From Segatella oulorum JCM 14966 (GTDB taxonomy: Bacteria > Bacteroidota > Bacteroidia > Bacteroidales > Bacteroidaceae): DNA of 64,000 nt. Shown piece after piece: positions 5,079 to 33,317 of this stretch; positions within the stretch are counted from its first letter, which is position 1, and each line of letters begins with the position of its first letter. Under the pieces are notes generated by a model. That model was given only the letters and a program-made list of their open reading frames with translations. It did not search any database and was not told where the DNA came from. Location: the NCBI RefSeq assembly GCF_000613785.1, contig NZ_BAJQ01000002.1:88283-152282 (forward strand). Direction: 5' to 3'. The position numbers and the translations under genes were made by a program.

Positions 5079-5080
5079 CA

Positions 5081-7682: not shown

Positions 7683-7689
7683 CATTTTT

Positions 7690-9087: not shown

Positions 9088-9148
9088 GCAGATTTTGCAG
9101 CATCATTCCCCACGAACAAGCCCAAAAGGCATGCCACAAAAATGAAAA

Positions 9149-9181
9149 AAGGCGCACGCTTCATCACGGAGCGTGCGCCTT
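9149..9181. terminator. Bidirectional terminator between hemG and beta-galactosidase genes
   Basis: Perfect 12-bp stem (AAGGCGCACGCT at 9149-9160 with its complement at 9170-9181) and a 9-base loop. It lies between convergent genes, with an A-run on the left that becomes a U-run for the minus-strand gene. Confidence 0.85.
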
Positions 9182-9217
9182 ACTATTGTATGACTAAAAC
9201 CTTTCCTTAAGAAAAAC

Positions 9218-12424
<3,207 letters not shown>

Positions 12425-12455
12425 TTAATGCAAATGATAATAGGTTAGAACGGGA

Positions 12456-12463
12456 CAAAGATA
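12456..12463 (-). promoter_or_regulatory. Promoter -7 box for the beta-galactosidase gene
   Basis: On the minus strand this reads TATCTTTG, a full match to TAnnTTTG, with a TTG about 20 bases further upstream. It gives a 5' leader of roughly 40 bases before the start at 12412. Confidence 0.65.
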
Positions 12464-12581
12464 GGCAAAAAAGACCCATGTCCCAATAATAATTTGTGAA
12501 ATAAACAAAAAAGGTAACGGGGGAATGAACCACCTTGCTGCATGGGTGAGCCGTTTGTGATGTCACTTGCAACACAAAAAA

Positions 12582-12659
12582 GGGCTTTCGATGCTCCTTT
12601 GCCCATCAGCACTGCGGCAGAAATGCCACAAAACTCATCACAGCAAGCATCAAAAGCCC
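12582..12659 (-). terminator. Probable enolase terminator
   Basis: A 14-base arm (GGGCTTTCGATGCT, 12582-12595) pairs with 12646-12659 with one mismatch, enclosing about 50 bases. On the minus strand it is followed by a run of U. It lies just past the enolase stop; the long loop makes it less certain than a simple hairpin. Confidence 0.55.
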
Positions 12660-12678
12660 CCTGAAAACCAATATTCTT

Positions 12679-14013
<1,335 letters not shown>

Positions 14014-14022
14014 TTAATGCCA

Positions 14023-14053
14023 CAAAGATAACAATTTTTTGGTGGATAAACAA
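14023..14053 (-). promoter_or_regulatory. Enolase promoter
   Basis: On the minus strand the -7 box TATCTTTG lies at 14023-14030, and TTG at 14051-14053 is 20 bases upstream. This is a near-consensus Bacteroidota promoter, fitting a highly expressed gene. Confidence 0.75.
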
Positions 14054-14200
14054 CACTTCTATTTAATGCTTTGCACATTTTTTTGTAAGTTTAAACCTAC
14101 GCCCCGTTCCATTGCCTTATTTTTCTTCTTCGCACCCTTCTGCAAGTCCCTTGCCATGGGCTCTTCACCCATTTGGCGGCCATGCCCCATCATTTTGCGC

Positions 14201-14266
14201 CACTTTGCCCGGCAATGTGATGCACTTTATCGCGTAAAACAGCACACTTTGCGCCACAATAGCATA
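14201..14266 (+). repeat. 22-bp periodic repeat, three units
   Basis: The 584-base gap between eno and namZ holds two promoters and this array. Units start at 14201, 14223 and 14245, each opening CACTTT. A fourth, out-of-phase copy (CATTTGGCGG) begins near 14170. No open frame in the gap looks coding. Confidence 0.7.
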
Positions 14267-14537
14267 GCAATTAGTGGGCCGAAGCGACTTTCCACGTGCG
14301 CATCGGCCACCACCTGCCGCCTCGTTGTCCGTCGAAAGCCTGTTCAAAAGGACTGCCGTTCTGTGACAACCCCTATCCTCATGGGCGAGAAATAGAAGTG
14401 CCCAGCCGCCGAAAATCCCATCAAGGCAGGGAAATTGCGGCAAAGAAAAACAGGTGTTTCGCAACTTCATTTCCCATTCCTGACATCAAACAAAAAGAAA
14501 AAACCGCCAAAATGATGCTTATTTCCAAGATTTATCT

Positions 14538-14545
14538 TACCTTTG
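14538..14545 (+). promoter_or_regulatory. Promoter -7 box for the namZ operon
   Basis: TACCTTTG matches TAnnTTTG and lies 27 bases upstream of the namZ start. The -33 region is weak. Confidence 0.55.
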
Positions 14546-14571
14546 CTGTCACAACCTCGAATTAATATGTA

Positions 14572-15744
14572 ATGAGAAAAATCGTTCTTCTCCTCATCAT
14601 GGGCTTCTGTTGCGGCGCAATGTGGGCCGCAAACGGCAACGATGTGCGCACGGGAGCCGACCAAACGGCGCGCTATCTGCCCCTGCTCAAAGGCAAAAAG
14701 GTGATGCTCTTTGCCAACCACACGAGCTGCATTGGCCAGCAACATCTGTTGGATGCGCTGCTCGGACACAGCATTAAGGTCGTGGGGGTGTTAGCCCCCG
14801 AACACGGATTTCGCGGCACTGCCGATGCCGGTGAGCATGTAAACGACGGCGTAGACGCGCAAACGGGCATCAAAATCTATTCGCTTTACAAGGGAACGAG
14901 CGGCAAGCCCGACCCTAAGGTGATGAAAAAAGCCGACATTTTGGTGATTGATATTCAAGATGTGGGCTTGCGATTTTACACCTATTATATAGCGATGCTG
15001 CGACTGATGCAGGTGTGTGCCGACACGGGCACGCCCGTATTGCTGCTCGATCGCCCCAATCCCAACGGGTTTTATGTGGATGGTCCGGTGTTAGAGGCAT
15101 CGCATTTCTCGGGTGTTGGTGCACTGCCTATCCCCGTGGTGCATGGCCTTACGCTCGGCGAATTGGCGCGCATGATCAACGGTGAAGGCTGGTTGGGCGG
15201 CAAAAAACAGTGCAAGCTCACCGTCATCCCTTGCGAAAACTATACCCATGCCACGCGCTATCGCCTGCCGATTGCCCCCTCTCCCAACCTGCCCAACATG
15301 CAATCCGTCTACCTTTACCCCGCCATTTGCCTCTTCGAAGGCACATGTGTGAGCTTAGGTCGCGGCACTTCGCTGCCCTTTCAGCAATATGGGCATCCGC
15401 AAATGGTGGGCTATAGTCACAGTTTCACGCCCCGAAGTGTGCCGGGAGCCAAGCATCCGCCGTTGGAAAATGAGCGTTGTTGGGGCATAGACCTCAGCCA
15501 ACTGCCCGAAGACAGCGTGCAGAAAACGGGCTTCGACCTATCGTATGTCATCAACGCCTACCGCAATTTAAACCGTGGAGACGCCTTCTTTACCTCGTTT
15601 TTTGAGAAGCTTGTGGGTGTCGATTACGTGCGCACCATGATTGAAGAAGGGTGCAGTGCGGGCGAAATCAAGGCGATGTGGCACGACGATGTCGAACGCT
15701 TTAAGCAACAACGCCGCCCCTATCTGCTCTATCCTAACTCGTAA
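14572..15744 (+). CDS. namZ: Exo-beta-N-acetylmuramidase NamZ-like (DUF1343, GH171)
   Basis: Predicted periplasmic or secreted enzyme that removes terminal MurNAc from peptidoglycan fragments. A signal peptide (MRKIVLLLIMGFCCGAMWA) is followed by the family motifs APEHGFRG, DIQDVGLRFYTYY, LDRPNPNG and SLGRGTSLPF. About 390 residues is normal for DUF1343 proteins such as B. subtilis NamZ (YbbC). The neighbours are a sodium symporter (15 bases away) and an AmpC-like serine hydrolase, the kind of set seen around characterised NamZ genes and in Tannerella MurNAc salvage. The family function is known; activity of this copy is inferred. No murQ, murK or phosphotransferase gene lies within the window. 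Confidence 0.85.
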   Translation: MRKIVLLLIMGFCCGAMWAANGNDVRTGADQTARYLPLLKGKKVMLFANHTSCIGQQHLLDALLGHSIKVVGVLAPEHGFRGTADAGEHVNDGVDAQTGIKIYSLYKGTSGKPDPKVMKKADILVIDIQDVGLRFYTYYIAMLRLMQVCADTGTPVLLLDRPNPNGFYVDGPVLEASHFSGVGALPIPVVHGLTLGELARMINGEGWLGGKKQCKLTVIPCENYTHATRYRLPIAPSPNLPNMQSVYLYPAICLFEGTCVSLGRGTSLPFQQYGHPQMVGYSHSFTPRSVPGAKHPPLENERCWGIDLSQLPEDSVQKTGFDLSYVINAYRNLNRGDAFFTSFFEKLVGVDYVRTMIEEGCSAGEIKAMWHDDVERFKQQRRPYLLYPNS

Positions 15745-15759
15745 ATACAACAAAAAATC

Positions 15760-17208
15760 ATGACACCTATACTGATCTTAACAACTGTTTTTCTCTACTT
15801 CGCCTTTCTTTTGTACATTTCTTTCCGTGCAAAAAGGAATGCTTCCAACGCTGCTTTCTTCTCGGGCAACCGGCAATCGCGCTGGTATGTGGTGGCCTTT
15901 GCCATGATAGGTGCCAGCATTTCGGGCGTCACCTTTGTGTCGGTGCCGGGCATGGTGGCGCAAAGTGGCTTCGGTTATCTGCAACTGATGTTGGGTTTTA
16001 TCGTGGGACAGTGCATCATCGCCTATGTGCTTGTGCCGCTGTTCTATCGCATTGGGCTCACTTCGGTTTACGAATATCTGCAAAATCGCTTTGGTAAAAC
16101 GTCCTATGTCACTGGCGCTTGGTTCTTCTTCCTATCCAAAATGCTCGGTGCGGCAGTGCGTTTATTCTTGGTTTGTGCCACCCTTCAGCTCCTGGCTTTC
16201 GGACCTTTGGGCATCCCTTTCGCCTGCAATGTGGCGGTATCGGTGTTCTTTGTGTGGCTCTATACGCACGAAGGCGGTGTGAAATCGGTGCTTTGGGCCG
16301 ACACCATGAAGACTTGTTGCTTGATAGCAGCTGTGGTTTTGTGTATTTTTTTCATTGCAAATAGTATGGACTTAAGTTTTTCTGCCCTACTAAAAAACAT
16401 TACATCGAGCCCCATGAGCCATGCCTTTCACTTCGAAGATGTAAACGACAAACAATATTTCTGGAAGCAATTCTTAGCCGGCATCTTCACGATGATTGCC
16501 ACAACGGGCTTGGATCAGGACATGATGCAACGCAATTTGAGTTGCAAAAACAGTAGGGAGTCGCAAAAGAACATGCTACTGAGCATTGTGTTGCAGCTGA
16601 TTGTGGTGAGTGCTTTCCTGATGTTGGGCGTGCTACTCTATCAGTTTGCTGCGGCCAAAGGCATCGAAGCCACAGGCGACAAGCTCTTTCCTGCGGTGGC
16701 AACGGGTGGCTATCTGCCCCTCGTGGTGGGCTTTTTGTTCATCATTGGCTTGGTGGCTTCGGCCTATAATGCGGCAGGATCGGCCTTAACCGCCCTCACA
16801 ACCTCGTTCACTTTAGACGTGTTGGGCCGCAAAAGCGACGACGAACAACAGACCACCCGCACGCGAAAAGGGGTGCATATCGGTATGGCTGTCACGATGA
16901 TGGTAGTGATTTTGGTGTTCAACGTGTTCAACAACACCAGCGTAGTCGACGCGGTCTACACCTTAGCCAGCTACACCTACGGCCCCATTCTCGGCCTCTT
17001 TGCCTTCGGCTTGCTCACCCATCATGCCGTCAACGACCGCTATATTCCGCTTGTTGCCATTGCTTCGCCACTGCTTTGCTACTTCATTGACAGCCATTCG
17101 GCGCAGTGGTTCAACGGCTATCGCTTCAGCTATGAGCTGTTGTTGATGAATGCTTTGTTCACCTTCGTCGGCCTTTGTCTGCTCATTAAAAAAGGAACGC
17201 GCGCATGA
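15760..17208 (+). CDS. Sodium:solute symporter, possible MurNAc transporter
   Basis: Inner-membrane SSS-family symporter of 482 residues with about thirteen hydrophobic segments. Family features include FSGNRQSRWYVVAFAMIG near the N-terminus, GASISGVTFVSVPG, and YNAAGSALTALTTSF in the later half. It begins 15 bases after namZ and overlaps the serine hydrolase by 4 bases, so all three are coupled. SSS proteins carry sugars, sialic acid or amino acids with Na+. Next to a muramidase, MurNAc is the best guess, by analogy with the MurT transporter of Tannerella. The substrate cannot be read from the sequence. Confidence 0.85.
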   Translation: MTPILILTTVFLYFAFLLYISFRAKRNASNAAFFSGNRQSRWYVVAFAMIGASISGVTFVSVPGMVAQSGFGYLQLMLGFIVGQCIIAYVLVPLFYRIGLTSVYEYLQNRFGKTSYVTGAWFFFLSKMLGAAVRLFLVCATLQLLAFGPLGIPFACNVAVSVFFVWLYTHEGGVKSVLWADTMKTCCLIAAVVLCIFFIANSMDLSFSALLKNITSSPMSHAFHFEDVNDKQYFWKQFLAGIFTMIATTGLDQDMMQRNLSCKNSRESQKNMLLSIVLQLIVVSAFLMLGVLLYQFAAAKGIEATGDKLFPAVATGGYLPLVVGFLFIIGLVASAYNAAGSALTALTTSFTLDVLGRKSDDEQQTTRTRKGVHIGMAVTMMVVILVFNVFNNTSVVDAVYTLASYTYGPILGLFAFGLLTHHAVNDRYIPLVAIASPLLCYFIDSHSAQWFNGYRFSYELLLMNALFTFVGLCLLIKKGTRA

Positions 17209-18479
17209 AACATTTTTATTTACATTCTTTACGCTGTGCCTTCGTCCTCGCAGGGCTGTTGTTTGGCTTCGCCATGTCGGCACAAAACATTGAGAAAACC
17301 ACCCCCGAAGCAGTGGGATTGGATGTCCATCGGCTGCAACAGGCAGATGCTTGCATTGACAAAGCCATCAGAGAAGGTCGCACGCCCGGTGCCGTTTTGG
17401 CCGTCGTGCGCCATGGAAAGATAGGCTATCTCAAGGCATACGGTCGGCGACAGACACTGCCTTCGCCTCTACCAATGACCGAAAACACCATCTTTGACAT
17501 GGCTTCGTGCACCAAATCGATGGCTACAACGATGGCTGTCATGCAACTGTTGGAGCAAGGAAAGCTGCGCTTGAACGACCCTGTGCAGCTATATTTGCCC
17601 CATTTTCAGAACTGGAAAGAGGGCCAAGGCGATAGCGTTGTCATCCGCATCGTGCACCTTTTGACCCACACTTCGGGCCTGCCGGCCTACGCACCGGTGG
17701 CCGATTTGCAAAAGAAGGGACGCTTCCCGGATGCCGAACGACAAATGAATTACATCGAAACATGCCGCAGAAACGAGAAACCAGCGTGCGACATGCAGTA
17801 TAGTTGCCTGAATTTCATCACATTACAACATATCGTTGAGCAGATAACGGGACAGTCTTTGCGCGACTATTGCGCCGAGCATGTGTTCCAACCCCTGCAC
17901 ATGCGCCACACGGATTTCATCCCTTGTGCGCCCAACAAACAGGGTTTTTGGGTGGAAACCGACAAACCTCGCTGGATGAAACGGGGCGAAAAGGCTGACA
18001 ACACACCCCTCGCTCCCACCGAAAAGCAGCCCAACGGTCAGATACTCTGCGGCATTGTGCACGACCCTTTGGCGCGGGTGATGAACGGAGGCATATCGGG
18101 TAATGCGGGTTTGTTTAGCAATGCCGAAGACATTGCGGTACTCTGTGCCATGTTGTTGAATGGGGGTTCGTGGCAAGGGCGGCAGATATTGAGCCCCTTA
18201 ACGGTTGAAAAAATGCAACAAATTCCTGCGGGTTTCGAGGCTTTTGGCCGCTGTTTAGGTTGGGACAAGTCGTCACCTTATGCCTCGAACAAAGGCGATT
18301 TGCTGAGCGATGCCGCCTTCGGTCACACGGGATATACGGGCACTTCGATTGTGATTGACCCCAAGAACGACCTCGCCATCATCCTTCTTACCAACGCTGT
18401 TCACCCCGTTGACAAAACCAATGTGGTGCGTTTGCGTGCCGAAGTGGCCAACGCCGTGGCAGGAAGCGTTACCCAATAG
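17205..18479 (+). CDS. Serine hydrolase (beta-lactamase/AmpC fold), probable muropeptide amidase or esterase
   Basis: Secreted penicillin-binding-protein-like hydrolase of 424 residues. It has a signal peptide (HSLRCAFVLAGLLFGFAMSAQ), the SxxK motif as SCTK at about residue 104, a YSC-L-N segment in place of the second YxN motif, and the HTG motif as GHTGYTG near the C-terminus, so the nucleophile and Lys are intact. It overlaps the symporter by 4 bases and ends the operon. In Bacillus, a related protein (YbbE/AmiE) acts with NamZ to strip peptides from MurNAc, so the same role is likely. A carboxylesterase role is the alternative. Confidence 0.8.
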   Translation: MKHFYLHSLRCAFVLAGLLFGFAMSAQNIEKTTPEAVGLDVHRLQQADACIDKAIREGRTPGAVLAVVRHGKIGYLKAYGRRQTLPSPLPMTENTIFDMASCTKSMATTMAVMQLLEQGKLRLNDPVQLYLPHFQNWKEGQGDSVVIRIVHLLTHTSGLPAYAPVADLQKKGRFPDAERQMNYIETCRRNEKPACDMQYSCLNFITLQHIVEQITGQSLRDYCAEHVFQPLHMRHTDFIPCAPNKQGFWVETDKPRWMKRGEKADNTPLAPTEKQPNGQILCGIVHDPLARVMNGGISGNAGLFSNAEDIAVLCAMLLNGGSWQGRQILSPLTVEKMQQIPAGFEAFGRCLGWDKSSPYASNKGDLLSDAAFGHTGYTGTSIVIDPKNDLAIILLTNAVHPVDKTNVVRLRAEVANAVAGSVTQ

Positions 18480-18584
18480 GCCACATCACCCCAACCTTTT
18501 CGACAAGAAGAAAGCGAGAAGGTGGCGGGAAGTAACGACATATAGCTTGTAAGGAAAGAAGAACTGTATCAGGAAAACAAAAGA

Positions 18585-18620
18585 AAAAGGTTGGCTTTGC
18601 GATGCAAGGGCCAACCTTTT
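18585..18620 (+). terminator. Terminator of the namZ operon
   Basis: Perfect 11-bp stem AAAAGGTTGGC / GCCAACCTTTT around a 14-base loop, ending in four U on the plus strand. It lies about 100 bases after the serine hydrolase stop. Confidence 0.8.
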
Positions 18621-18668
18621 GTGTGGGGATTATGGGGCAAAGACTGTGGGCATAGCCCCTGACAACGC

Positions 18669-18955
18669 CATCTTTCGCAGGCAATCTCAGGCATCTCTTA
18701 CACCCACCCGTGCCCCCTTTTGTAACCAGCTCAACCGCTTTTTGGCGTCACCTCGGTCGTTGTTTGAAGCAATCTCTACCACTTTCCGCGGCAATCTCCA
18801 CCATTTTTCGTGGCAATCGCTGCCATTTTTCGCAGTAATCTCTACTGCTTTTTAGCGCTATCGCTATCATTTTTCAAAGACACCTTAAAGACTTGTTGCG
18901 GAAGGCACAGCTGTTTTCTGCGGCAACCTCAACGGCCTTTTGGGGAAACGAGCTA
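18669..18955 (+). repeat. Long 22-bp periodic repeat array, about 13 units
   Basis: Most of the 540-base gap between two convergent operons is one degenerate tandem array. Clear units start at 18669, 18692, 18714, 18736, 18758, 18780, 18802, 18824, 18846, 18868, 18890, 18912 and 18934: a 22-base step with a single 1-base slip. The consensus has CATTTTTCGC at positions 1-10 and GCAATCTC at positions 12-19. It lies between two terminators, so it may not be transcribed as part of either operon. No open frame is supported here. Confidence 0.85.
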
Positions 18956-18966
18956 TACATGATCAA

Positions 18967-19002
18967 AAAATGCACGTTCCATCTGTGTGAAACGTGCATT
19001 TT
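18967..19002 (-). terminator. Terminator of the FKBP operon
   Basis: 12-bp stem AAAATGCACGTT / AACGTGCATTTT with a 12-base loop just beyond the last FKBP stop. On the minus strand it continues into a U-run. Confidence 0.8.
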
Positions 19003-19019
19003 ATAGTGATGAAATATCC

Positions 19020-19916
19020 TTACTTCTTCTTCTCGATATTCACCAGTTCGACGGTAAAGATGAGTGTAGAATAGGGCTTAATCTGACCTGCTTGTCGCGC
19101 ACCATAAGCCAATTCTTGCGGAATGCACACCTCCCATTTGCTGCCAACGGGCATCATCGTGAGCGCTTGTGTCCATCCTTTAATCACTTCATCGCAACGG
19201 AACGTGTTGGTTTGTGGGTCGCGTCGGTAGCTGCTATCAAAGACAGTACCGTCGATTAAGCGGCCTTCGTATTTCACAACCACACGGTCTGAGTCCTTAG
19301 GCACAGCGCCTTTGCCTTCGACAAGCACCTTATATTGCAAGCCAGAAGGAAGCGTTTTGAAGCCTTCTTTCTTGGCATTGTTGGCCAACCATGCTTCGTT
19401 CTCCTTTTTATAGGCTTCGTTTTTGCGGGCAATGGCCTGGTCACGGTGCTGCATAAAGCTCTGTGCTGCCTTGCGAGGTGTGAAGAGCAATGTGTCGTTG
19501 TGCAACGCATCGACAAATCCTTTGATAAAAGTGGCCCGCTGAATCGAATCGTTTGTGCCCTCAAGTCCTTGGCGCATGTTGGGCAAAATGCGGCTGTTCA
19601 CCATCTCGGCAATCTGCATTCCGGCCGCATAAGCCTTGAAAGCCGCGTCGTTAACATGCTGTTGTGCCTCGTTGAAACCACGCAGAAAATCGGCCATTCC
19701 GGTGCTGTCTACGCCAAATTGCTGCTGCAAATAGGGCAAAAGACCCTCGGTAGCGGTCATTCCTGCCACATAACTTAGGGTGTCATTAGGTGTTAAAAGC
19801 TGCACAGCCTCTTTCTGTTCAACCACCCCTTTCTTCTTCTTTCCCTCCTTTGCCTGTAGGGTTGCAAAGGAAACGCTCGCCAAAAAGACGAGCGTCAGCA
19901 TGAATATTTTTTTCAT
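19020..19916 (-). CDS. FKBP-type peptidyl-prolyl isomerase, secreted (third of three)
   Basis: Periplasmic prolyl isomerase of 298 residues. It has a signal peptide (MKKIFMLTLVFLASVSFATLQAK), a helical FkpA/Mip-like dimerisation domain, and an FKBP domain from about residue 195 (LPSGLQYKVL, DGTVFDSSY, VIKGWTQAL, PQELAYGARQAG). A lysine-rich stretch follows the signal. It lies 9 bases after the second FKBP gene and is the last of the operon. A role in folding outer-membrane or periplasmic proteins fits the family; no specific client is visible. Confidence 0.9.
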   Translation of the reverse strand: MKKIFMLTLVFLASVSFATLQAKEGKKKKGVVEQKEAVQLLTPNDTLSYVAGMTATEGLLPYLQQQFGVDSTGMADFLRGFNEAQQHVNDAAFKAYAAGMQIAEMVNSRILPNMRQGLEGTNDSIQRATFIKGFVDALHNDTLLFTPRKAAQSFMQHRDQAIARKNEAYKKENEAWLANNAKKEGFKTLPSGLQYKVLVEGKGAVPKDSDRVVVKYEGRLIDGTVFDSSYRRDPQTNTFRCDEVIKGWTQALTMMPVGSKWEVCIPQELAYGARQAGQIKPYSTLIFTVELVNIEKKK

Positions 19917-19925
19917 TATTGCTGT

Positions 19926-20807
19926 TTATTTTCCATTCACTTTCACCAATTCAATCTTAAAGATGAGGGCAGAGAAAGGCTTAATCTGACCTTGTTCGCG
20001 CTCACCATAAGCCAGTTGCTGAGGAATATACACTTCCCATACCGAGCCGGCAGGCATGTGTACGAGAGCTTCTGTCCATCCTTTAATCACCTGATTGGCC
20101 TTCAAAGTGATGGGTTCCTTACGTGCATAACTGCTATCGAACACCTTTCCGTCGATGGTTTTACCCTCATAGTTCACCACAACCGTAGAAGTATCCTTAG
20201 GCATTGCGCCGCTACCCTCTTTGATGACCTTATATTGTACGCCCGAAGGAAGTGTCTTTACACCAGCTTTCTTGGCGTTAGCAGCCAACCATTTCTCGCC
20301 GGCTGTCTTGTTAGCGCCATATTGTTGCATCATATTCTTGCTCTTAATGGCCATCATTTTAGCCTGAGCCAAGGTCTGAGCCTGCTCGATTGTCATCTTC
20401 ACAGCACCCGTCTTGCCCGTTGTTCCGGCAATGAAACCGGCCATAAAGTTCTTCAAAGAGATGCTCTTTGTAGAGTCTTGACCATAGACTTCGGTATTGA
20501 TTCCCTTAATCATTTGGTTAGAAATCTGCTGACCTATCTGTATACCAGCATAATAAGCGGCACGCTTCTTGTCGTCACCTGCATTAGCACCATCGTTCAA
20601 ACCTTTGATAAAATCGTCCATATAGGTGGTGTCGATTTGCATTCTCTCAACTAAGAAGTTCTTCAAACCTTGTGTTTGAGCCATTCCCATTGCGTAACTC
20701 ATGGAGTCAACATCACTCTTTAAGTCGGCTTTAGGAGTTGAATTTCCGCACGAAGCGAATGTTAAAGCCATGCCAAACATGGCAGCTGCGAAAGCAATTT
20801 TTTTCAT
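19926..20807 (-). CDS. FKBP-type peptidyl-prolyl isomerase, lipoprotein (second of three)
   Basis: Lipid-anchored prolyl isomerase of 293 residues. The signal MKKIAFAAAMFGMALTFASC ends in a lipobox, so I chose the ATG at 20807; the frame stays open further upstream but runs into the neighbouring gene. A helical FkpA-type domain precedes the FKBP domain (LPSGVQYKVI, DGKVFDSSY, VIKGWTEAL, PQQLAYGEREQG). It is closely similar to the third gene, so the two look like a tandem duplication followed by a change of signal type. Spacing is 14 bases to the first gene and 9 to the third. Confidence 0.92.
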   Translation of the reverse strand: MKKIAFAAAMFGMALTFASCGNSTPKADLKSDVDSMSYAMGMAQTQGLKNFLVERMQIDTTYMDDFIKGLNDGANAGDDKKRAAYYAGIQIGQQISNQMIKGINTEVYGQDSTKSISLKNFMAGFIAGTTGKTGAVKMTIEQAQTLAQAKMMAIKSKNMMQQYGANKTAGEKWLAANAKKAGVKTLPSGVQYKVIKEGSGAMPKDTSTVVVNYEGKTIDGKVFDSSYARKEPITLKANQVIKGWTEALVHMPAGSVWEVYIPQQLAYGEREQGQIKPFSALIFKIELVKVNGK

Positions 20808-20821
20808 TTTGATGATTATTT

Positions 20822-21427
20822 TTATTTTACTGCTACTAATTCTACATCGAAAATCAAGGCGGCATAAGGCGGAATCGAGGCACCGGCGCCACGCTCTCCG
20901 TAGGCCAACTGATAGGGAATGAAGAAACGATACTTTGCTCCTTCGTGCATGAGTTGCAGCCCTTCGGTCCAACCTGCAATCACTTGATTGAGTGGGAACG
21001 TGGCCGTTTGTCCACGATCGTAGGACGAATCGAACTTTGTTCCATCGATTAACGTGCCTTCATAATGGCATTCCACCTGATCGGTAGCCTTGGGTTGTTT
21101 GCCATTTCCATCGCGAAGCACCTGGTATTGCAAGCCCGAAGCGGTGGTTTTCACCCCCTCTTTCTTTGCATTCTCGGCCAAGAACTGCTCGCCTTCGGCC
21201 TTTGCTGCCTTGCCTTTCTCGGCATTTGCAGCCTGTTGCAGGGCCTCTTGTTCGGCAAAAAACTGCTGCACCATCTGCTGTGCTTCAGCCTCTTTCATCT
21301 TCAACTCGCCGCCAGTCATCACATCTTTGATGGCTTGTGCAAAGTCATCTATGTTGAGCCCCTCGGCATTCATTTGCAATAATTGGTGCCCAATGCCCAA
21401 ACCCAGGGCGTAACTTAATTGATCCAT
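20822..21427 (-). CDS. FKBP-type peptidyl-prolyl isomerase without signal peptide (first of three)
   Basis: 201-residue prolyl isomerase whose N-terminus (MDQLSYALGLGIGHQLLQ) is already the start of the FkpA-like helical domain, with no signal sequence, so it is probably cytoplasmic. The FKBP domain occupies about residues 92-201 (TASGLQYQVL, DGTKFDSSYDRG, VIAGWTEGL, YQLAYGERGAG). An EAQQMVQQFF to AANAEKGKAAKAEGE stretch forms a long Ala/Gln/Glu helix. It leads the operon from a consensus promoter. Confidence 0.9.
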   Translation of the reverse strand: MDQLSYALGLGIGHQLLQMNAEGLNIDDFAQAIKDVMTGGELKMKEAEAQQMVQQFFAEQEALQQAANAEKGKAAKAEGEQFLAENAKKEGVKTTASGLQYQVLRDGNGKQPKATDQVECHYEGTLIDGTKFDSSYDRGQTATFPLNQVIAGWTEGLQLMHEGAKYRFFIPYQLAYGERGAGASIPPYAALIFDVELVAVK

Positions 21428-21477
21428 CTGCGTAATATCGCTTTGCTGATTAATGTTTTACATTTAAATTTCAGCTG

Positions 21478-21508
21478 CAAAGATAGCAGAATAAAACAGA
21501 ATTCAAAA
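21478..21508 (-). promoter_or_regulatory. Promoter of the FKBP operon
   Basis: On the minus strand the -7 box TATCTTTG lies at 21478-21485 and a TTTTG at 21504-21508 lies 18 bases upstream. The leader is about 45 bases. Confidence 0.7.
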
Positions 21509-21560
21509 GAAACAACACCTTAATTTTATTAAAAAAGGCACACCATCCGCGTTTTTTCGT

Positions 21561-21568
21561 TATATTTG
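21561..21568 (+). promoter_or_regulatory. Promoter -7 box for the sirtuin gene
   Basis: TATATTTG, full match to TAnnTTTG, 65 bases upstream of the start. No good -33 element is seen. Confidence 0.5.
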
Positions 21569-21633
21569 TGGTCAGCCTGTTGGAACCCACCTGACTGCTG
21601 TTCCACGGCGAAGCAAAACAAAACAACATTCAA

Positions 21634-22347
21634 ATGATGAAACATCTTGTGTTTTTAACGGGTGCAGGCATGTCGGTTGAGAGTGGTTTTAAGACCTTTC
21701 GCGGGAGTGATGGCCTGTGGGAGAACTATCCTGTGGAGCAGATTGCCACCCATGAAGGGTGGGAACGCGACCCCGAATTGGTGACGAATTTCTACAACAT
21801 GCTGCGCAAAAAGCTATGGACGGCCGTGCCCAACGAGGGACATCGCCTCATTGCATCGCTGCAAAACGACTACGAAGTGACGGTCGTCACGCAGAATGTA
21901 GACAATCTTCACGAGCGGGCGGGCAGCAAAAAGGTGATTCATCTGCATGGCGAATTGGCCAAAGTGTGCTCGAGTCGCGACCCTTACAACACCCAATGTA
22001 TTGAGGAACTGACCCCCGAAAACAGCGATGTGGTGCCGGGTTCGCGTGCCAAGGATGGCAGTTTGCTGCGCCCCTTCATCGTGTTTTTCGGTGAAAGTGT
22101 GCCGATGATTGAGCCGGCCATCGCCGAAACGCAGCGTGCCGACCTCTTCATTGTCATCGGAACGAGCCTCAATGTCTACCCGGCAGCAGGTCTTTTGCAC
22201 TATTGTTCGCCCCAAACGCCCATCGTGCTCATCGATCCTAACCCTGTAAACACGGCTCACGACCGACCCATCACCACGCTAAAGATGGGAGCAAGCGAAG
22301 GCATGCGCACCCTGATAGCGCAGCATCTGACGCAGCTGTTGGCTTAG
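21634..22347 (+). CDS. cobB: Sirtuin, NAD-dependent protein deacylase
   Basis: Removes acyl groups from lysines using NAD in the cytoplasm. The Rossmann core shows LTGAGMSVESGFKTFRG, the catalytic histidine stretch TQNVDNLHERAG and HLHGEL, and IVIGTSLNVYPAAGL. The zinc-binding module is unusual: one cysteine follows the active-site His (KVCSSRD) and another is eleven residues on (TQC), but no second CxxC pair is present. The substrate-pocket motif begins FYNMLRKK, keeping the Tyr of the YxxR deacylase motif but with Leu at the Arg position. Desuccinylase activity is therefore uncertain. The stop overlaps the convergent DUF3108 gene by 4 bases. Start may be 21634 or 21637. Confidence 0.88.
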   Translation: MMKHLVFLTGAGMSVESGFKTFRGSDGLWENYPVEQIATHEGWERDPELVTNFYNMLRKKLWTAVPNEGHRLIASLQNDYEVTVVTQNVDNLHERAGSKKVIHLHGELAKVCSSRDPYNTQCIEELTPENSDVVPGSRAKDGSLLRPFIVFFGESVPMIEPAIAETQRADLFIVIGTSLNVYPAAGLLHYCSPQTPIVLIDPNPVNTAHDRPITTLKMGASEGMRTLIAQHLTQLLA

Positions 22348-23222
22348 TTTCTGAGGCCTTTCACGCCCACCAAGAACGCTTTTGCCGAACCAAAGCGCAA
22401 GAAAAGGTCTAATCGCACGGGCACATGGTTGGCATCATCGGTGACATAGAAGTCGACAATGCGCTTGTATTTGCCGTCCTGCAACTCTAAATACGACAGC
22501 CGTAAACAGTTATATTTCACGTCGTTGTCGCCCGTCACCGTGGTTTTTCCTTCGAAACGCAGTTGTGCCGGCTTGCGATCATCACCGTCAACGATGGGGA
22601 AATTCACGACATATCCCGCCTTCCAGTTGGCAGGATTGAACGAACGTGCCCGCAAAAAGATGCTCAACATGTCGTAGACACAGTCGTCATAGCTGTGCTT
22701 TGTCCACGAATTAGTGCCGTCGTTGTGCAACATGTGCTGCTGCACATTGCATTTTCCGCTGCCATACGTGTAAAACACCTCGTCCACTGTGTAACGTTTT
22801 CCCTCGCGTGCACCCTTGCGAAAATACAGAGGTTCGAGGTCGAGCGAGTTGTAACAGAGCAACGTGTCGCGCAACACAAACACATTGTCGACACGATTAC
22901 TGCCGCGTGTTATCAAGCTGGCGCGATAGGCATCCTTACCTTTATAACGGCTTTGCACAATCGACATGCTGGCCGTTCCCGCCTTTACCCACACGAATTT
23001 CCAGTTGTAATAGAGGTTGTAGGACAGAAACTCGCCCGACTTAAAGGCGGTGTTGCGAAACTTGCAGGGTGAGTCGCCCGCGTCATGCGTGGCTGAAGGT
23101 GCTGCCGCGTGCAGCATAAAACTTGACAAAGTGATGGTCATGAGACCCAAACCAACCCCCAGCAGCCACGCTGCATAGCGGGGTTTGCGAGGCGATTTAT
23201 TTTTTCCTTTCTGTGTTGTCAT
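22344..23222 (-). CDS. DUF3108 domain-containing secreted protein
   Basis: 292-residue protein with a basic N-terminus and one membrane-spanning signal (YAAWLLGVGLGLMTITLSSF), followed by a beta-rich domain beginning GEFLSYNLYYNWKFVWVKAGTASM, typical of DUF3108. The function of the family is unknown; members are usually envelope proteins. It is the last gene downstream of the GH3 / Ig-like lipoprotein pair, but a 225-base gap with a 22-bp repeat array separates them, so co-transcription is uncertain. Its stop overlaps that of the sirtuin gene. Confidence 0.8.
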   Translation of the reverse strand: MTTQKGKNKSPRKPRYAAWLLGVGLGLMTITLSSFMLHAAAPSATHDAGDSPCKFRNTAFKSGEFLSYNLYYNWKFVWVKAGTASMSIVQSRYKGKDAYRASLITRGSNRVDNVFVLRDTLLCYNSLDLEPLYFRKGAREGKRYTVDEVFYTYGSGKCNVQQHMLHNDGTNSWTKHSYDDCVYDMLSIFLRARSFNPANWKAGYVVNFPIVDGDDRKPAQLRFEGKTTVTGDNDVKYNCLRLSYLELQDGKYKRIVDFYVTDDANHVPVRLDLFLRFGSAKAFLVGVKGLRN

Positions 23223-23287
23223 ATCCTTTTATGTTTAATCTTTTTCTTCAATTTTTCTTCGTTCCTCTTTTGTGCCGCCCTAAAAGC

Positions 23288-23353
23288 CATGCTTTTGCGG
23301 CGTAAAGACGCATGGATTGTGCGCCAAAATGGTGCAGATTGCCGCCCCATTCG
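23288..23353 (-). repeat. 22-bp periodic repeat in reverse orientation, three units
   Basis: Read on the minus strand, units cover 23332-23353, 23310-23331 and 23288-23309, with CATTTTGGCG and GGCAATCTGC blocks matching the family consensus. A more diverged copy may occupy 23354-23375. It lies between two same-strand genes. Confidence 0.65.
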
Positions 23354-23447
23354 CATGCTTTTACTCCGGCTGAAGCATGCCCTGTGCATCGCAACCGGCA
23401 GCTTTGGGCGCCGGGACTGCCACCAAAAGACGCAGCTGCCCACCCAC

Positions 23448-25456
23448 TTAGGGTTTATATTCAATGCCCAAACTGCGGGCGCGCTCGGCATTTCGATGCT
23501 GAATGGTCTTCTGCTTGTCGGCCTTCTGCTGCGTGATGGCGGCGGGTTTCTGCGCATAAAGCGGCACGGCCGTGGGGTTCCACGTCTCGTTCACATCCCA
23601 TTTCGCCTTGCATTCTATCTTCCCCGGATAATAATACACGGCCTCGGGCTGCCGCTGAGTGGCATAATCGCCCGTGTCCCACACGCCATTATGGTTGTCA
23701 TCGACAAACAAACGCAGGTAATAGGTGTCGGGAACGACATAGAAAAACTCCGCGCGGCCGTCGGCAGCCCGCGCCGTTTTCACCACCTTGTCGCTCTTGT
23801 CGAGCAGCGACACCACGCAATCTTTGCCCTCCATGCCGGCGAGCGTGATGAACAGCGTGCTGTATTCATCGAGGGTTTTCACCTTAAATCCCTGTTTAAA
23901 CTTTTTCGAAATGGCACCGTAGATGTCGGCAAACGCCAAACTATCGGTCTCGAAACTATACTCCTGTCCGGGCTTCCACTCGCCCAACAGCTCATAGTCT
24001 GTGCCATATTTCAGCGAGTCGGGGCGCACCAACTGCCCCAAAGCGTTGCGCCGCGCGACGGGTTTCAGTTCATAACGCGCCCGATACCACAGCGTGTCGA
24101 CTTTGGTATAGAGGTGCACCTTGCTCGTGTCGATGGTGGCCAACGGCGTGTTGAAATGCAACAACACGTTTTTATCGGGGGCGAAATCGCTCGAGATGTC
24201 GGCCTGCATCGTCACCATTTCGGGCGGATAGGCCGTCTCATAGGGTTCGTCGCGCTTTTTCTTTTTCTCCTGTTGTTTTTGCCATTGCTCAAAAGCCTTT
24301 TGCTTTTGCTTCATCCGTTGCGCATAGGTCACTTTCGACAGCACCTCCAATGTGTCGGTATGTGCCACGAGTTGGCCGAGCGAGTCGGTGCGCATGTAGG
24401 TCAATTCCATGCGCAACGTGTCTTGATTCACCAAGGCCGTGTCGCGCAACCAATAGTCGATGGTGTCGTTTTTGGCGTGGGCAATGGGGATGAAGGCGTT
24501 GTGGGCGTTGAAATTCAGCCCTTGATGGTGGGCAAATGCTTGTCGCCATAGCTGAAATTCACCGTGAAATGGTTGGCCTCTTTGCGGTTGACGCTGAGCA
24601 GATAGCGATTGGTCTGCACCTCTTGAAAGGCCGCAAGCGCAATGTCATCGGGCAGGAAATGGGTGTAGCCCACGCGCTTGATGTCGGCAATGTGGAGCGA
24701 ATCGCGCCACACGGTGTCCTGTCTGACGTCAGCTTTATAGGCAGTTTGAAGCGTGTCGTGGTTGAAAGCAATCTTCTCACTCTTTTGGTTGAACTGATAG
24801 TTGCCATCCATATCCTGCAAGGCATAGATGCGATAGGTGCCCGATTTCACGCCTTTGATGACAAAATGGCCGCGGCTGTCGGTGCGACTCACACGCAACA
24901 TGGGCAGCGTTTGAAAGGCCGAGTCGGATAGATTGGCATACAGCCCCACCAAAATGCCCTTCACCGGCTCAAGGTTTTCGGCCGCCACAACATAGCCCGA
25001 CACCTGCATTGTGTCGATGGTTTCGCCGGTAGAGAAACTGTAAGTGTAGTTGCCTAAGGGGTTTCCCTCGTTATTATCGCTGATGGCATCGCTGAAATCA
25101 ATGGTGTAGGTGGTGTTGCGTTGGAGCGAGTCCAACAGCTTCACTTCAATAGTTTTACCCGTGGCTTTGATTTCGGGCATCTGTAATTGGGGCGGCGAAA
25201 CAATCACTTTCTCGGTGGCATTGTCGATTTTGACAAACTCGTTGAAGTTGATTCTGATTTTACGCTGCTTCACATTGGTGCCCTGATCAGCTGGTTCTGC
25301 ACCCACAACGTGCGGCGGTGTCTCGTCATACCAGCCGCCATCGGGGTTGCCCATGCGTGCACATGCGGCCAAACAGGCCACAAGCAGCACTGCAAAGAGC
25401 ACTGTGAGACTGCTCCACCGCTTGCGATATATCGAACAATTATTGGCTTTTTTCAT
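23448..25456 (-). CDS. Ig-like (SbsA-type) domain lipoprotein, one-base frameshift
   Basis: Envelope lipoprotein of about 669 residues if the frame is restored. The signal ends at LLVACLAAC, and the mature start (RMGNPDGGWYDETPP) is typical of Bacteroidota proteins with a bacterial Ig-like domain (TNVKQRKIRINFNEFVKIDN). A carboxypeptidase-regulatory-like segment follows. The frame stops at KHLPTIKG (TGA at 24515-24517). Adding one base to AAGGGCTGAATTTC restores G-L-N-F-N-A-H-N-A-F and reads on to 23448. The second half holds a Lys/Gln-rich coiled stretch and a further Ig-like unit. It starts 16 bases after GH3. Function is unknown, and the break is probably a sequencing deletion. Confidence 0.8.
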
Positions 25457-25472
25457 ACCTTACGTTATAGAA

Positions 25473-26999
25473 CTACTCCGCCATGAGGTTGGAATGGTCA
25501 AACGAGAGCAGCGCCTCGATGTTCTTTCGACTGTTGCTCAAGCGCGGCACTTTGTGTTGTCCGCCCAATTTTCCGTTGGCTTTCATCCAGTCGTTAAACA
25601 GTCCTTTGCGCGCCACAATCACCTCTAACGGCTGCAAGGTGATGTCATGAAAGCGCTTAGCTTCGTAGTCGCTGTTGAGGGTTTGCAGCTGCTGGTCCAA
25701 CAGTTCGGCAAAATGGGCGATGGAGTTGGGCGGCGTAGCAAACTCAATGAGCCACTGATGGCGGCATTTTGCCTGCTCATTCATAAACACGGGCGCAGCG
25801 GTATATTCGCGCACTTCGGCACCTGTTTGCGCACAAGCATAGGCCAATCCCTGCTCGGCATTGTCCATAATGAGCTCTTCGCCAAAGGCATTGATGAAAT
25901 ATTTGGTGCGCCCGGTGATGATAAATTTATAGGGTTGGGTGCTTGTGAAGCTCACGGTGTCGCCAATGGCATAACGCCACAGGCCGCAACTCGTGGTGAT
26001 GAGCATGGCATAGTTGACGCCTGTCTGCACGCCTTCCAAGGGGATGATGGTGGGATGTTCGCTTCCAAACTCGCTCATGGGAATGAATTCGTAGAACACA
26101 TCGTAGTCGACCATCAGCAAAAGGCTCTTGTCGGCGGGGTCGCTTTGTATGCCAAAGAAACCTTCACTGGCGTTGTAGGTCTCCATATAGTGCATGTTGG
26201 GGCTGGTGATGAGCTGCTCGTATTGCGAGCGATAGGGCGTGAAAGCGATGCCGCCGTGAAAAAATACTTCCAAATTGGGCCACACTTCTTCCAAATGTTG
26301 CTTGCCCGAGAGTTCCATCACGCGCACCAAAACACTGAGCATCCAGCTCGGCACGCCCGAGATATTCGTGACATTTTTGTGCAGACATTCGTGGGCTATG
26401 CGGTCGCGTTTCAGTTCGAAATCGCTCAACAGTGCCGTTTGTTTCTTCGGCACCCGCACGAGATTGGCCAAGGGGTTGATATTCTCTATCAAGATAGCAC
26501 TGAGGTCGCCCACCAAAGAACCTACCCGATTGTAGTTGGAAGCGTGGCTGCCGCCGAGGATAAGGCCGCGCCCATCGAAGAGTTTGCTTGTGGGATGGTT
26601 GCGCAGATAGAGGGCCACGGTGTCGAAACCGCCGGCATAATGAATATGATGTAAGCCCATGTGCGACACGGGAATGAACTTGCTTTTGTCGTTGGTGGTG
26701 CCCGACGATTTGGCAAAGAAACGCACCCGCCCCGGCCAAAGCACATTGTTTTCGCCATGACGCATGCGGTCGATGTCGGCTTTCAATTCTTCATAGCTGT
26801 TCACAGGCACCAACTTAGCAAAGTCATCATACGTTGCCACGCGGTTCATTTGCACCTTTCGGCCATATTCAGTGTTGGCACCTTGCGCCACCAAACGCAT
26901 TAAAACATCGTGCTGCAAGGCGATTGCGGCATCATCATAACGTTCTAATTGCTTTTGGCGCGGCACGAAAACATTGCGCACAATATGGGTTAAACTCAT
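25473..26999 (-). CDS. GH3 family protein (auxin-responsive GH3 fold)
   Basis: 508-residue member of the GH3 acyl-adenylate-forming family, named for plant hormone-amino acid conjugases; bacterial members have no established substrate. Seen here are the adenylate motif AKSSGTTNDKSKFIPVS (about residue 95), GVPSWMLSVL, YNASEGFFGIQ and the C-terminal INAFGEELIMDNAE. Length is normal. It leads an operon with the Ig-like lipoprotein, from a -7 box 25 bases upstream of its start. Conjugation of an amino acid to a small carboxylate is the family reaction, and its use here is unknown. Confidence 0.88.
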   Translation of the reverse strand: MSLTHIVRNVFVPRQKQLERYDDAAIALQHDVLMRLVAQGANTEYGRKVQMNRVATYDDFAKLVPVNSYEELKADIDRMRHGENNVLWPGRVRFFAKSSGTTNDKSKFIPVSHMGLHHIHYAGGFDTVALYLRNHPTSKLFDGRGLILGGSHASNYNRVGSLVGDLSAILIENINPLANLVRVPKKQTALLSDFELKRDRIAHECLHKNVTNISGVPSWMLSVLVRVMELSGKQHLEEVWPNLEVFFHGGIAFTPYRSQYEQLITSPNMHYMETYNASEGFFGIQSDPADKSLLLMVDYDVFYEFIPMSEFGSEHPTIIPLEGVQTGVNYAMLITTSCGLWRYAIGDTVSFTSTQPYKFIITGRTKYFINAFGEELIMDNAEQGLAYACAQTGAEVREYTAAPVFMNEQAKCRHQWLIEFATPPNSIAHFAELLDQQLQTLNSDYEAKRFHDITLQPLEVIVARKGLFNDWMKANGKLGGQHKVPRLSNSRKNIEALLSFDHSNLMAE

Positions 27000-27023
27000 C
27001 TTTTTTCCATCTCAAATGAATTG

Positions 27024-27031
27024 CAAATTTA
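27024..27031 (-). promoter_or_regulatory. Promoter -7 box for the GH3 operon
   Basis: TAAATTTG on the minus strand, 24 bases upstream of the GH3 start. Confidence 0.6.
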
Positions 27032-27235
27032 GTGCAATCTTCTGAAAAAAGGGCATGATTTAGCAATTTTAAGAAACCCACGCACCCCCAACTCGCCCAT
27101 ATAACCAGGAGAAAACGGCTTATGTGGTTACACCTTATTATATATAGCCATGCCAAAACAAATTGTATTGCGACGCAATGGCACCGATTTTATGCGTCAT
27201 ATCAGTAGCCATCTTACACAATTACGACAAAAAAA

Positions 27236-27267
27236 TTTGGATATTCCATGAATAAAACTTATCTTTG
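27236..27267 (+). promoter_or_regulatory. Promoter of the tRNA-Gly/tRNA-Leu unit
   Basis: TTTG at 27236-27239 and TATCTTTG at 27260-27267 with a 20-base spacer: a full-consensus Bacteroidota promoter, 11 bases before the first tRNA. Confidence 0.85.
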
Positions 27268-27278
27268 CACCACTGTTT

Positions 27279-27351
<73 letters not shown>

Positions 27352-27382
27352 CGATTTGTTAATATCTAAGGAGCAATCCGAT

Positions 27383-27467
27383 GCCGCAATGGTGGAATTG
27401 GTAGACACGAGGGACTTAAAATCCTTGGCCAGAAATGGCTGTGCGGGTTCGAGTCCCGCTCGCGGCA
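27383..27467 (+). tRNA. tRNA-Leu (TAA)
   Basis: Class II tRNA with a long variable arm, anticodon loop CTTAAAA and T arm GGGTTCGAGTCCC. The acceptor GCCGCAA / TCGCGGC contains one A-C mismatch at pair 6-67, either natural or a base error. It lies 31 bases after tRNA-Gly, in the same transcript. Confidence 0.93.
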
Positions 27468-27491
27468 CATCACTTTAAAGATGTATACATT

Positions 27492-30172: not shown

Positions 30173-30271
30173 ACGGCAAAAGCAGTCAGCAGATGTCACA
30201 CTTCGTCGCGCATTTGCTACGCCCCACGCCCCTCATCTTCTACACCTAACCATTCATTCCCCCACCACTCC

Positions 30272-31812: not shown

Positions 31813-31915
31813 TCAGACAGGCATGCCCGAAGCCGGCAACAATATCGTCCATTTTACTCCGTAATTACAACGTAAATACGGCATAAAGTGAATGGAAAAA
31901 GTGCACTATTCATGC

Positions 31916-32114
31916 TATATTTGTCAGCTCTATCTCCCCAAACGAACGATCATTCCAATCCATCGCACGGCTACGGCCGAAGCATTTATTTACCATTTTG
32001 AAACAATTCTGCCGCGACGAAACGATTGCTTTCATGAGAAGATGGTGTGTAGCCACGGCTGACCAATGAGAAAAAAGAAAACGAAGTGTTCTGCCATGGC
32101 AGAACACTTCGTTT
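31916..32114 (+). ncRNA. Candidate small RNA with own promoter box and terminator
   Basis: The 470-base gap between comM and the C1 peptidase has a TATATTTG box (31916-31923) on the plus strand and a perfect 36-base palindrome (32079-32114) followed by a U-rich run. Between them, about 150 bases hold no convincing open frame. A transcript of roughly 185 bases is possible. The -33 element is poor, and the terminator could also serve the convergent C1 peptidase gene. The rest of the gap (32115-32282) shows nothing. Confidence 0.3.
32079..32114. terminator. Perfect 36-base palindromic terminator
   Basis: 18-bp arms (AAACGAAGTGTTCTGCCA and its exact complement) with A-run on the left and TTTATTTTA on the right, so it can act on both strands. 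Confidence 0.8.
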
Positions 32115-33290: not shown

Positions 33291-33317
33291 GCCCAACAAA
33301 GTTACAAAGAAAATCAG

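What the first reader, a model, noticed from the sequence alone, without database searches (positions are those of the whole stretch)
18669..18955. Largest member of a dispersed intergenic repeat family with a strict 22-bp period
About 13 degenerate units run almost without slippage between two convergent terminators. The common blocks are CATTTTTCGC at the unit start and CAATCTC near position 13, about 22 bp or two helical turns apart. The same pattern recurs in at least five other gaps of this window and in both orientations, never inside a gene. A period that is kept while the sequence drifts suggests selection on spacing, as for a nucleoid-type protein, a phased bend, or slow turnover by replication slippage. 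I know of no named element that matches.
Basis: partly seen in the sequence, partly recalled or inferred. Interest (0 to 1): 0.8.

Follow-up and report, generated by a model that had tools for sequence, protein, structure and literature searches.

The report
Chromosome-wide 11-base DNA docking lattice
In this Prevotella-like bacterium the 22-base repeat array is one clear stretch of a pattern that runs through genes and gaps alike, an A/T-rich mark every 11 bases kept in step for about a kilobase and written in genes mainly through silent codon choices, which likely serves as a ladder of docking sites for a DNA-packaging protein that has not been identified.

Summary
In detail: 18669-18955 holds about 12 units of 22 bp (self-match 0.517 at lag 22; shuffles 0.259, 0 of 1000 reach it). 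The unit is a degenerate 17-bp dyad (YAAW...WTTR) plus a 5-bp linker, hence "both orientations". It is not a stand-alone family: an A/T mark every 11.01 bp runs through genes and gaps of the 464 kb examined, in step for about 1 kb. In genes it sits in synonymous codons: fourfold sites are 75% A+T at lattice phase 0, 22-28% at phases 3-8; synonymous shuffling removes about 90% of it. Some relatives carry the lattice, and two of them (G011, G060) clear 22-bp dyads of the same geometry but other sequence. Against relative G011, even bases that changed still follow this genome's phase, so it is actively maintained; lattice-negative G016 shows none of this. Most likely it is the DNA side of a chromosome-coating protein, one dimer per 22 bp, working like phage p6. 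Periodic A-tracts are a known kind; the kilobase coherence, the strength and the in-register dyads appear new.

The parts
18669..18955 (.). The array of the finding: about 12 units of 22 bp, each a 17-bp dyad YAAW..WTTR plus a 5-bp linker
18782..18825 (.). 44 bp (two units) absent from the orthologous array of Prevotella sp. HJM029
18586..18619 (+). Terminator-like inverted repeat of the upstream gene (arms 18586-18595 and 18610-18619)
   Evidence: read by eye; not listed by the scan
18967..19002 (-). Terminator-like inverted repeat of the downstream convergent gene (arms 18967-18978 and 18991-19002)
   Evidence: read by eye; not listed by the scan
2826..2913 (.). About four units of the same 22-bp lattice in another gap
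14186..14278 (.). About four units of the same lattice, divergent gap
23276..23368 (.). About four units; the syntenic G011 gap has no clear array
31835..31927 (.). About four weak units
37795..37882 (.). About four units, followed by a 44-bp-period tandem array
50585..50672 (.). About four units; the syntenic G011 gap has no clear array
1..64000 (.). 11.01-bp A/T lattice through genes and gaps; 123 of 127 500-bp stretches above z 2.5, phase kept for about 1 kb
   Evidence: period
42001..43000 (.). Stretch without the lattice, a ketoacyl-synthase (FabF-like) gene

Best explanation
The array is the intergenic form of an 11-bp A/T lattice that runs in step through genes and gaps, and it likely acts as the DNA side of a nucleoid-protein coat in which one unidentified symmetric dimer would sit on each 22 bp and would touch the minor groove once per 11 bp. 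Shown here: the 11.01-bp lattice, its coherence over about 1 kb, its coding in synonymous codons, its continuity across gene borders, the 22-bp dyad geometry found with other sequences in G011 and G060, and continued keeping of phase between this genome and G011. In gaps, where no codons bind, the marks would settle into the dimer's own palindromic site; in genes only the A/T contact every 11 bp can be kept.
For: Random-start models of gap DNA converge on one 22-bp dyad. AA|TT autocorrelation keeps phase: amplitude 0.0296 at lags 30-150 and 0.0120 at 1000-2000; 50 kb of E. coli is at noise and Synechocystis pSYSM falls from 0.0050 to 0.0015 beyond 150 bp. Fourfold sites 0.749 A+T at phase 0, 0.225-0.277 at phases 3-8 (39,523 sites); synonymous shuffling leaves about a tenth. 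The mark is a narrow A-then-T peak with flat composition over phases 3-8, as for a contact per turn. Continuity across borders 130 of 152. G011 and G060 units: same 17+5 geometry, different sequence. G011 bases follow this genome's phase even where the third base changed (0.070, 95% 0.042-0.097) or the codon box was replaced (0.111, 0.081-0.146); G016 gives -0.011 and 0.002 with intervals including zero. Weak in the ribosomal L2 region, and 25 of 37 lattice-free 1-kb windows lie in three stretches.
Against: No reader found: HU, histone fold, Lrp/AsnC and HU-HIG do not separate the genomes. Array positions turn over: 1 of 5 own arrays in 16 syntenic gaps has a strong G011 counterpart. Fourfold sites at the marks are not significantly more conserved against HJM029 (0.134 against 0.147, z -1.2; gaps 0.119 against 0.150, z -3.3). 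Decoded arrays show no preferred start or end within the unit. The polarity alternation in gaps is imperfect (autocorrelation +0.027 at 22, -0.032 at 31, but +0.013 at 11). Lattice-negative G016 still has a weak period-22 excess in its gaps (z 5.9).
Confidence: 0.5

Rival explanations
1. Intrinsic DNA curvature alone: phased short A-tracts make the chromosome a regular superhelix that helps plectoneme or nucleoid folding, with no dedicated reader.
For: AA/TT phased at 11.01 bp; published periodicity is usually read this way (passages).
Against: The mark is a narrow peak rather than a wave, the marks are short (AAW/WTT), gaps add a 22-bp dyad with conserved linker letters that curvature does not need, and the dyad sequence differs between species while its geometry stays. 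Curvature itself was not computed.
Confidence: 0.25
2. Mutational imprint: a rotationally phased coat or DNA damage and repair bias the mutations every 11 bp, and the sequence in turn keeps the phase; no selection on the lattice itself.
For: It touches nearly all synonymous sites examined, which is much to ask of selection; 25 of 37 lattice-free windows fall in three stretches with island-like genes; constraint against HJM029 is weak at fourfold sites.
Against: Amino-acid-setting codon positions move with it too (position 1 A+T 0.586 to about 0.42, position 2 0.685 to about 0.59), marks in gaps are moderately conserved (z -3.3), and a palindromic 22-bp unit is not an expected mutation product.
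Confidence: 0.15
3. Minisatellite or MITE family: the arrays spread and slip as selfish or neutral tandem repeats like BrickBuilt of Porphyromonas gingivalis.
For: Exactly two units gained or lost against HJM029; near-identical units in L002; array positions differ between species.
Against: Does not explain the in-register lattice inside genes, nor the same geometry with other sequences elsewhere; no match in the plasmid or phage collections.
Confidence: 0.07
4. RNA hairpins: the dyads act in transcripts as stems, for example as terminators or stabilisers.
For: Units are quasi-palindromic; the terminator scan lists three weak stem-plus-T sites inside the array.
Against: No consistent Watson-Crick covariation between dyad halves: z from -4.6 to 3.1 over 8 pairs in 1139 own units and -8.4 to 2.1 in 517 G011 units (these were picked by match to the palindrome, which biases against covariation). 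No Rfam family in the window except three tRNAs. The lattice also lies inside coding DNA.
Confidence: 0.03

Closest known systems
A-tract (AA/TT) 10-11 bp periodicity of prokaryotic chromosomes (PMC3431218, PMC3940949, PMC4132750, PMC7537859; Tolstorukov 2005 A-tract clusters as cited there; PMC1242344 seen in a listing only)
   Same: AA/TT phased at about 11 bp, carried by synonymous third positions (cyanobacteria: synonymous replacement leaves 10-20%), weaker around highly expressed genes
   Different: Published patterns are about 100 bp long and about 2 percent in E. coli; here phase holds for about 1 kb, fourfold sites swing from 75% to 22-28% A+T, and gaps carry a 22-bp dyad in register
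phi29 / GA-1 protein p6 nucleoprotein filament (PMC10899789, passages)
   Same: Works alike on paper: one dimer per about two turns (24 bp; monomers every 11 bp in GA-1), minor-groove contact, recognition of a bendability rhythm rather than one sequence
   Different: p6 is a phage protein on a phage genome; no p6-like gene was looked for here, and here the rhythm is written through a bacterial chromosome
BrickBuilt minisatellite-MITE of Porphyromonas gingivalis (PMC4596501, abstract, section 5, part 1 of section 7)
   Same: Bacteroidales, intergenic, short tandem units, copy-number change
   Different: 23-nt unit, 19 copies, leader and tail with terminal inverted repeats; no genome-wide register described in the parts read
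Lrp/AsnC octamer wrapping (recalled; families tested)
   Same: Dyad sites spaced about two turns; four dimers would span 88 bp, close to the common 4-unit runs
   Different: Copy number does not follow the lattice, and the helix of the compared paralog is the same in G011, G060 and lattice-negative G016

Membership tests
Chromosomal A-tract periodicity | AA/TT spacing near the helical repeat | tested here: met
   11.009 bp, bootstrap SD 0.0013, 46 pieces of 10 kb
Chromosomal A-tract periodicity | carried by synonymous positions in genes | tested here: met
   about a tenth left after synonymous shuffling
Chromosomal A-tract periodicity | coherence of about 100 bp | tested here: not met
   far exceeded: amplitude 0.0120 still at lags 1000-2000
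BrickBuilt MITE | 23-nt unit | tested here: not met
   22-bp model gain 1748 against 732 at 23
BrickBuilt MITE | intergenic location | tested here: met
   the 22-bp polarity is seen in gaps, not genes
BrickBuilt MITE | leader and tail with terminal inverted repeats, target duplications | not tested
   no systematic search made
p6-like dimer filament | dimer every two turns with one contact per turn | tested here: inconclusive
   the DNA pattern fits; protein binding is not testable here
p6-like dimer filament | p6 homologue in the genome | not tested
   no search run
Lrp/AsnC as reader | gene or its helix follows lattice and unit sequence | tested here: not met
   1-3 copies in 21 of 22 genomes, positive and negative alike, none found in lattice-negative G003; one paralog compared: helix identical in G011, G060 and G016, two residues different in this genome
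Histone-fold chromatin (PF00808) | gene present | tested here: not met
   none in this genome; 1 of 29 genomes, of another family
HU / HU-HIG as reader | copy number follows the lattice | tested here: not met
   sequences of the paralogs were not compared
Structured RNA repeat | compensatory changes between the two arms | tested here: not met
   (with the selection caveat)

The most novel reading that the evidence does not exclude
This chromosome carries a written register for bacterial chromatin: a filament of a dedicated dimeric protein, one dimer per 22 bp, lies on nearly the whole genome in a fixed phase kept since this species and G011 split, and the need to keep that phase, more than translation, decides most synonymous codon choices.
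Probability: 0.4. Interest if true: 0.95.

Novelty: new variant of a known kind. Interest (0 to 1): 0.87.

Why it matters
The role of 10-11 bp periodicity in bacterial chromosomes has stayed open because the signal is usually weak and short. Here it is strong, has a defined 22-bp unit that can be used as bait, and comes with close relatives that lack it, so its reader and purpose become directly testable. If right, much of the codon bias in these genomes is set by DNA packaging, which matters for codon-based gene finding, for spotting acquired DNA (island-like stretches lack the lattice), and for any use of synonymous sites as neutral.

Tried and rejected
BLAST-only family view: dropped once models trained on all gap DNA gave the same unit. 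Freely trained background: too diffuse (71% occupancy), replaced by a fixed one. Coding against gap occupancy with the 22-bp model: coding 0.486, gaps 0.412, but the AT-rich background lets coding DNA score by composition; not used either way. Array edges: no clear preferred register. Hairpins. Reader candidates HU, histone fold, Lrp, HU-HIG. Position of arrays between species: mostly not kept; one apparent long array, L020:11349-12651, probably includes a missed gene end. First ortholog test had only 4 genes of G011 and was replaced by 53. SNP constraint looked strong in the first 20.9 kb (fourfold phase 0 0.113 against about 0.19) and shrank with 49.8 kb. I first noted the period as exactly 11.00; the bootstrap gives 11.009. 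In G011 the count of dyad matches at 11 of 16 or more is not above scrambled palindromes (157 against 100-173 in the first 10 pieces); matches at 13 or more are (19 against 0-4), and the 22-bp spacing carries the signal. Plasmid and phage collections: no match.

Full report
What was asked.

The array. The period is real (0.517 at lag 22, shuffles 0.259 +- 0.027, 0 of 1000). Twelve units are placed at 22-bp steps apart from a first 44 and a last 25, between convergent genes. BLAST of the array against its own 2.83-Mb genome gives 15 matches at E<=1, itself included; the clearest other array, L002, has ten units, several identical. Chaining units with a profile showed that the unit is nearly its own reverse complement, which explains the two orientations. 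The nearest named record is Prevotella sp. HJM029.

The intergenic unit. I fetched 400 kb more of the genome (464 kb with the window, about 16% of it) and called genes by codon statistics (home-made, so gap borders are approximate). In 83 kb of gaps the self-match peaks at 22, 44 and 66 (z 18.3, 17.6, 16.5), above 10, 11, 12 and 33 (10.6, 12.8, 15.3, 12.3). Circular models of length 22, one seeded and three from random starts, reach the same gain (1748) and the same unit: YAAW at one end, WTTR at the other of a 17-bp dyad, then a five-base linker. One random start each at other lengths gives 271 (20), 662 (21), 732 (23), 378 (24), 1306 (11), 1399 (33). Occupancy of gap DNA is 0.41 against 0.11 in shuffles; decoded arrays 192 against 47.

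The lattice. AA and TT are phased at 11 bp in genes as well. The pooled AA|TT autocorrelation keeps its phase: amplitude 0.0296, 0.0272, 0.0240, 0.0193, 0.0120 at lags 30-150, 150-300, 300-600, 600-1000, 1000-2000. The period is 11.009, bootstrap SD 0.0013 over 46 pieces. In the window 123 of 127 500-bp stretches carry it with z above 2.5; phase agrees within 1.5 bp in 101 of 123 neighbouring pairs (chance 33.5), 83 of 121 at 1 kb, 58 of 119 at 2 kb, and 33 of 115 at 4 kb, which is chance. Of 886 1-kb windows 37 have z below 2.5, where 95.6% would without periodicity. Fifty kb of E. coli is at noise. Fifty kb of the Synechocystis plasmid pSYSM gives 0.0050, falling to 0.0015 beyond 150 bp; a plasmid may not speak for its chromosome.

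Silent codons carry it. In 177 genes of 900 nt or more (267 kb) the amplitude falls from 0.0276, 0.0233, 0.0167 (lags 30-150, 150-300, 300-600) to 0.0029, 0.0021, 0.0018 on synonymous shuffling inside each gene. With the local phase estimated without the site's own neighbourhood, 39,523 fourfold sites have A+T 0.749 at phase 0 and 0.225-0.277 at phases 3-8. Codon positions 1 and 2 move less (0.586 to about 0.42; 0.685 to about 0.59). In gaps the mark reads A before T around phase 0 and composition is flat over phases 3-8.

One lattice, two forms. The phase runs through borders: gap against left flank within 1.5 bp in 130 of 152 (chance 41.5), right against left flank in 109 of 151 (chance 41.2). 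The array has phase 6.3, the gap before it 6.0, the gene after it 5.8; the gene before it averages 4.5 and has risen to 6.2 by 18001-18500; the 64 bp at 18956-19019 is out of step at 2.9. A 22-bp alternation of AA and TT exists in gaps (0.0073 at lags 8-120) and not in genes (0.0000), though it is imperfect: +0.027 at lag 22, -0.032 at 31, but +0.013 at 11.

Relatives. Fourfold modulation at period 11: own 0.227 (z 73), HJM029 0.181, G011 0.198, G008 0.076, G012 0.060, G010 0.058, G001 0.054, G002 0.040 (borderline: z 3.5, and at noise). That is 6 of 15 same-genus genomes, 20 kb each, with z of 3.5 or more in the right phase; 0 of 5 genomes of other families; E. coli 0.007. G013 has z 3.1 in the wrong phase. 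Of 15 further same-genus genomes by autocorrelation, G060 is clear and G054, G055, G068 at most weak, judged against one shuffled 20-kb piece.

Same geometry, different words. G011's gaps give TAATTTGA-N-TCAAATTA-CAnnG from both random starts (gain 3076, against 443-1400 at 20, 21, 23, 24 and 1722 at 11). There are 60 runs of 3 or more matches in 820 kb, mostly 3-4 long, and 134 neighbour spacings of exactly 22. G060 gives CAAAAnCGnCGCTTTTG-CAnTG (737 against 292-579; self-palindrome correlation 0.97). G010, from 2.4 kb of gaps, gives TAAAAGnnnTGCTTTTG-Gnnnn (101 against 55-82). G008 prefers 22 (258 against 162-172, self-palindrome 0.85) with a less clear unit; G012 and G001 are too small to read. 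Negative pools gain 89-168 at any length, with 22 slightly highest. G016 gains 287 at 22 against 171-210, with no readable unit, and has a weak period-22 excess in its gaps (z 5.9), so a trace of the gap form may exist where the coding lattice is absent.

Phase is kept, not just inherited. In 53 own-G011 orthologs per-gene phases agree within 1.5 bp in 42 of 50 genes; in the lattice-negative control G016 in 25 of 41, presumably through shared protein sequence. The cleaner test reads G011's fourfold bases on this genome's phase against expectation from G011's codon composition: all same-amino-acid sites 0.143 (95% 0.117-0.169, 5865 sites); only sites whose third base changed 0.070 (0.042-0.097, 3363 sites); only replaced codon boxes 0.111 (0.081-0.146, 2119 sites). 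G016, 51 orthologs: 0.001, -0.011, 0.002, all intervals including zero. So bases placed since the split still obey the lattice.

Short-term evolution. Against HJM029 (92.4% identity over the first 20.9 kb) the array differs by exactly two units, the only indel of 8 nt or more (net) among 71 in 49.8 kb. Marks are moderately conserved in gaps (0.119 against 0.150, z -3.3), slightly at other coding sites (0.035 against 0.040, z -2.2), not significantly at fourfold sites (0.134 against 0.147, z -1.2). Array positions turn over: of 5 own arrays with z above 10 in 16 syntenic gaps, 1 has a strong G011 counterpart; two more G011 gaps score 4.7 and 7.1 with the own model.

Where it is missing. Of the 37 weak windows, 25 fall in three stretches: L016:1-6500, L020:14001 to L021:2000, and L029:5501-10000. 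Genes there include WYL and metallo-hydrolase, acyltransferase-MMPL, sulfatase, AAA ATPase and DUF4435 proteins (10 of 22 overlapping genes were named by Pfam). The others include a FabF-like gene and PEP carboxykinase. The 20 kb around ribosomal protein L2 has a mean z near 2.9 per kb against a median of 5.4, and in G011 amplitude 0.0029 against 0.0108 elsewhere (the genes in those stretches were not annotated). This agrees with the published remark that highly expressed genes lie in weakly periodic segments (PMC3940949 passages).

How it most likely works. A mark every helical turn on one face, A then T, suggests minor-groove contacts; two marks of opposite polarity per 22 bp suggest a symmetric dimer; kilobase coherence suggests a cooperative coat; sequence-divergent dyads of fixed geometry suggest a reader that changes with its site. 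These four steps are inference. Protein p6 of phi29 is the nearest working analogue: dimer per 24 bp, minor groove, and 11 bp per monomer in GA-1 (PMC10899789 passages). HU, histone-fold, Lrp and HU-HIG gene counts do not separate positive from negative genomes.

Prior work and novelty. Third-position coding of 11-bp A/T periodicity is known in cyanobacteria (PMC4132750 passages), and persistent periodicity in some chromosomes (PMC3431218, outline and part 1 of section 4). E. coli spacings vary by about 2 percent (PMC7537859, abstract, part 1 of section 5 and passages). BrickBuilt was read in outline, section 5 and part 1 of section 7 (PMC4596501). In the listings I saw no report of kilobase phase coherence, of 22-bp dyad arrays in register with it, or of either in Prevotella; the library holds only open-licence papers.

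Noticed in passing
window 37903-38085: Tandem array of period 44 (4.2 copies, 80% matches), twice the 22-bp unit, right after a gap with lattice units.
   Followed up: no
window 63784-63996: Tandem repeat of period 66 (3.2 copies, 84% matches) at the window's end, three times 22 and also a whole number of codons.
   Followed up: no
window 54049-54488 and 54546-55058: A gap with period-33 self-match of 0.64 lies just upstream of one of the genome's two Lrp/AsnC-family genes.
   Followed up: partly
L034:18114-18240: An own-genome array that reads more like the G011 unit (TAATTTG...CATATTA) and scores higher with the G011 model (z 28.6) than with its own (17.3); the syntenic G011 gap also has an array.
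   Followed up: partly
L016:1-6500 and L029:5501-10000: Lattice-free stretches with island-like genes (WYL, metallo-hydrolase; AAA ATPase next to DUF4435), possibly recent arrivals or defence islands.
   Followed up: partly
L002:1390-1609 (G000:C135): Ten 22-bp units, several identical, which looks like recent unit-wise amplification.
   Followed up: no
window 19020-21427: Three adjacent minus-strand reading frames that look like related FKBP-type peptidyl-prolyl isomerases (read by eye, no family search).
   Followed up: no
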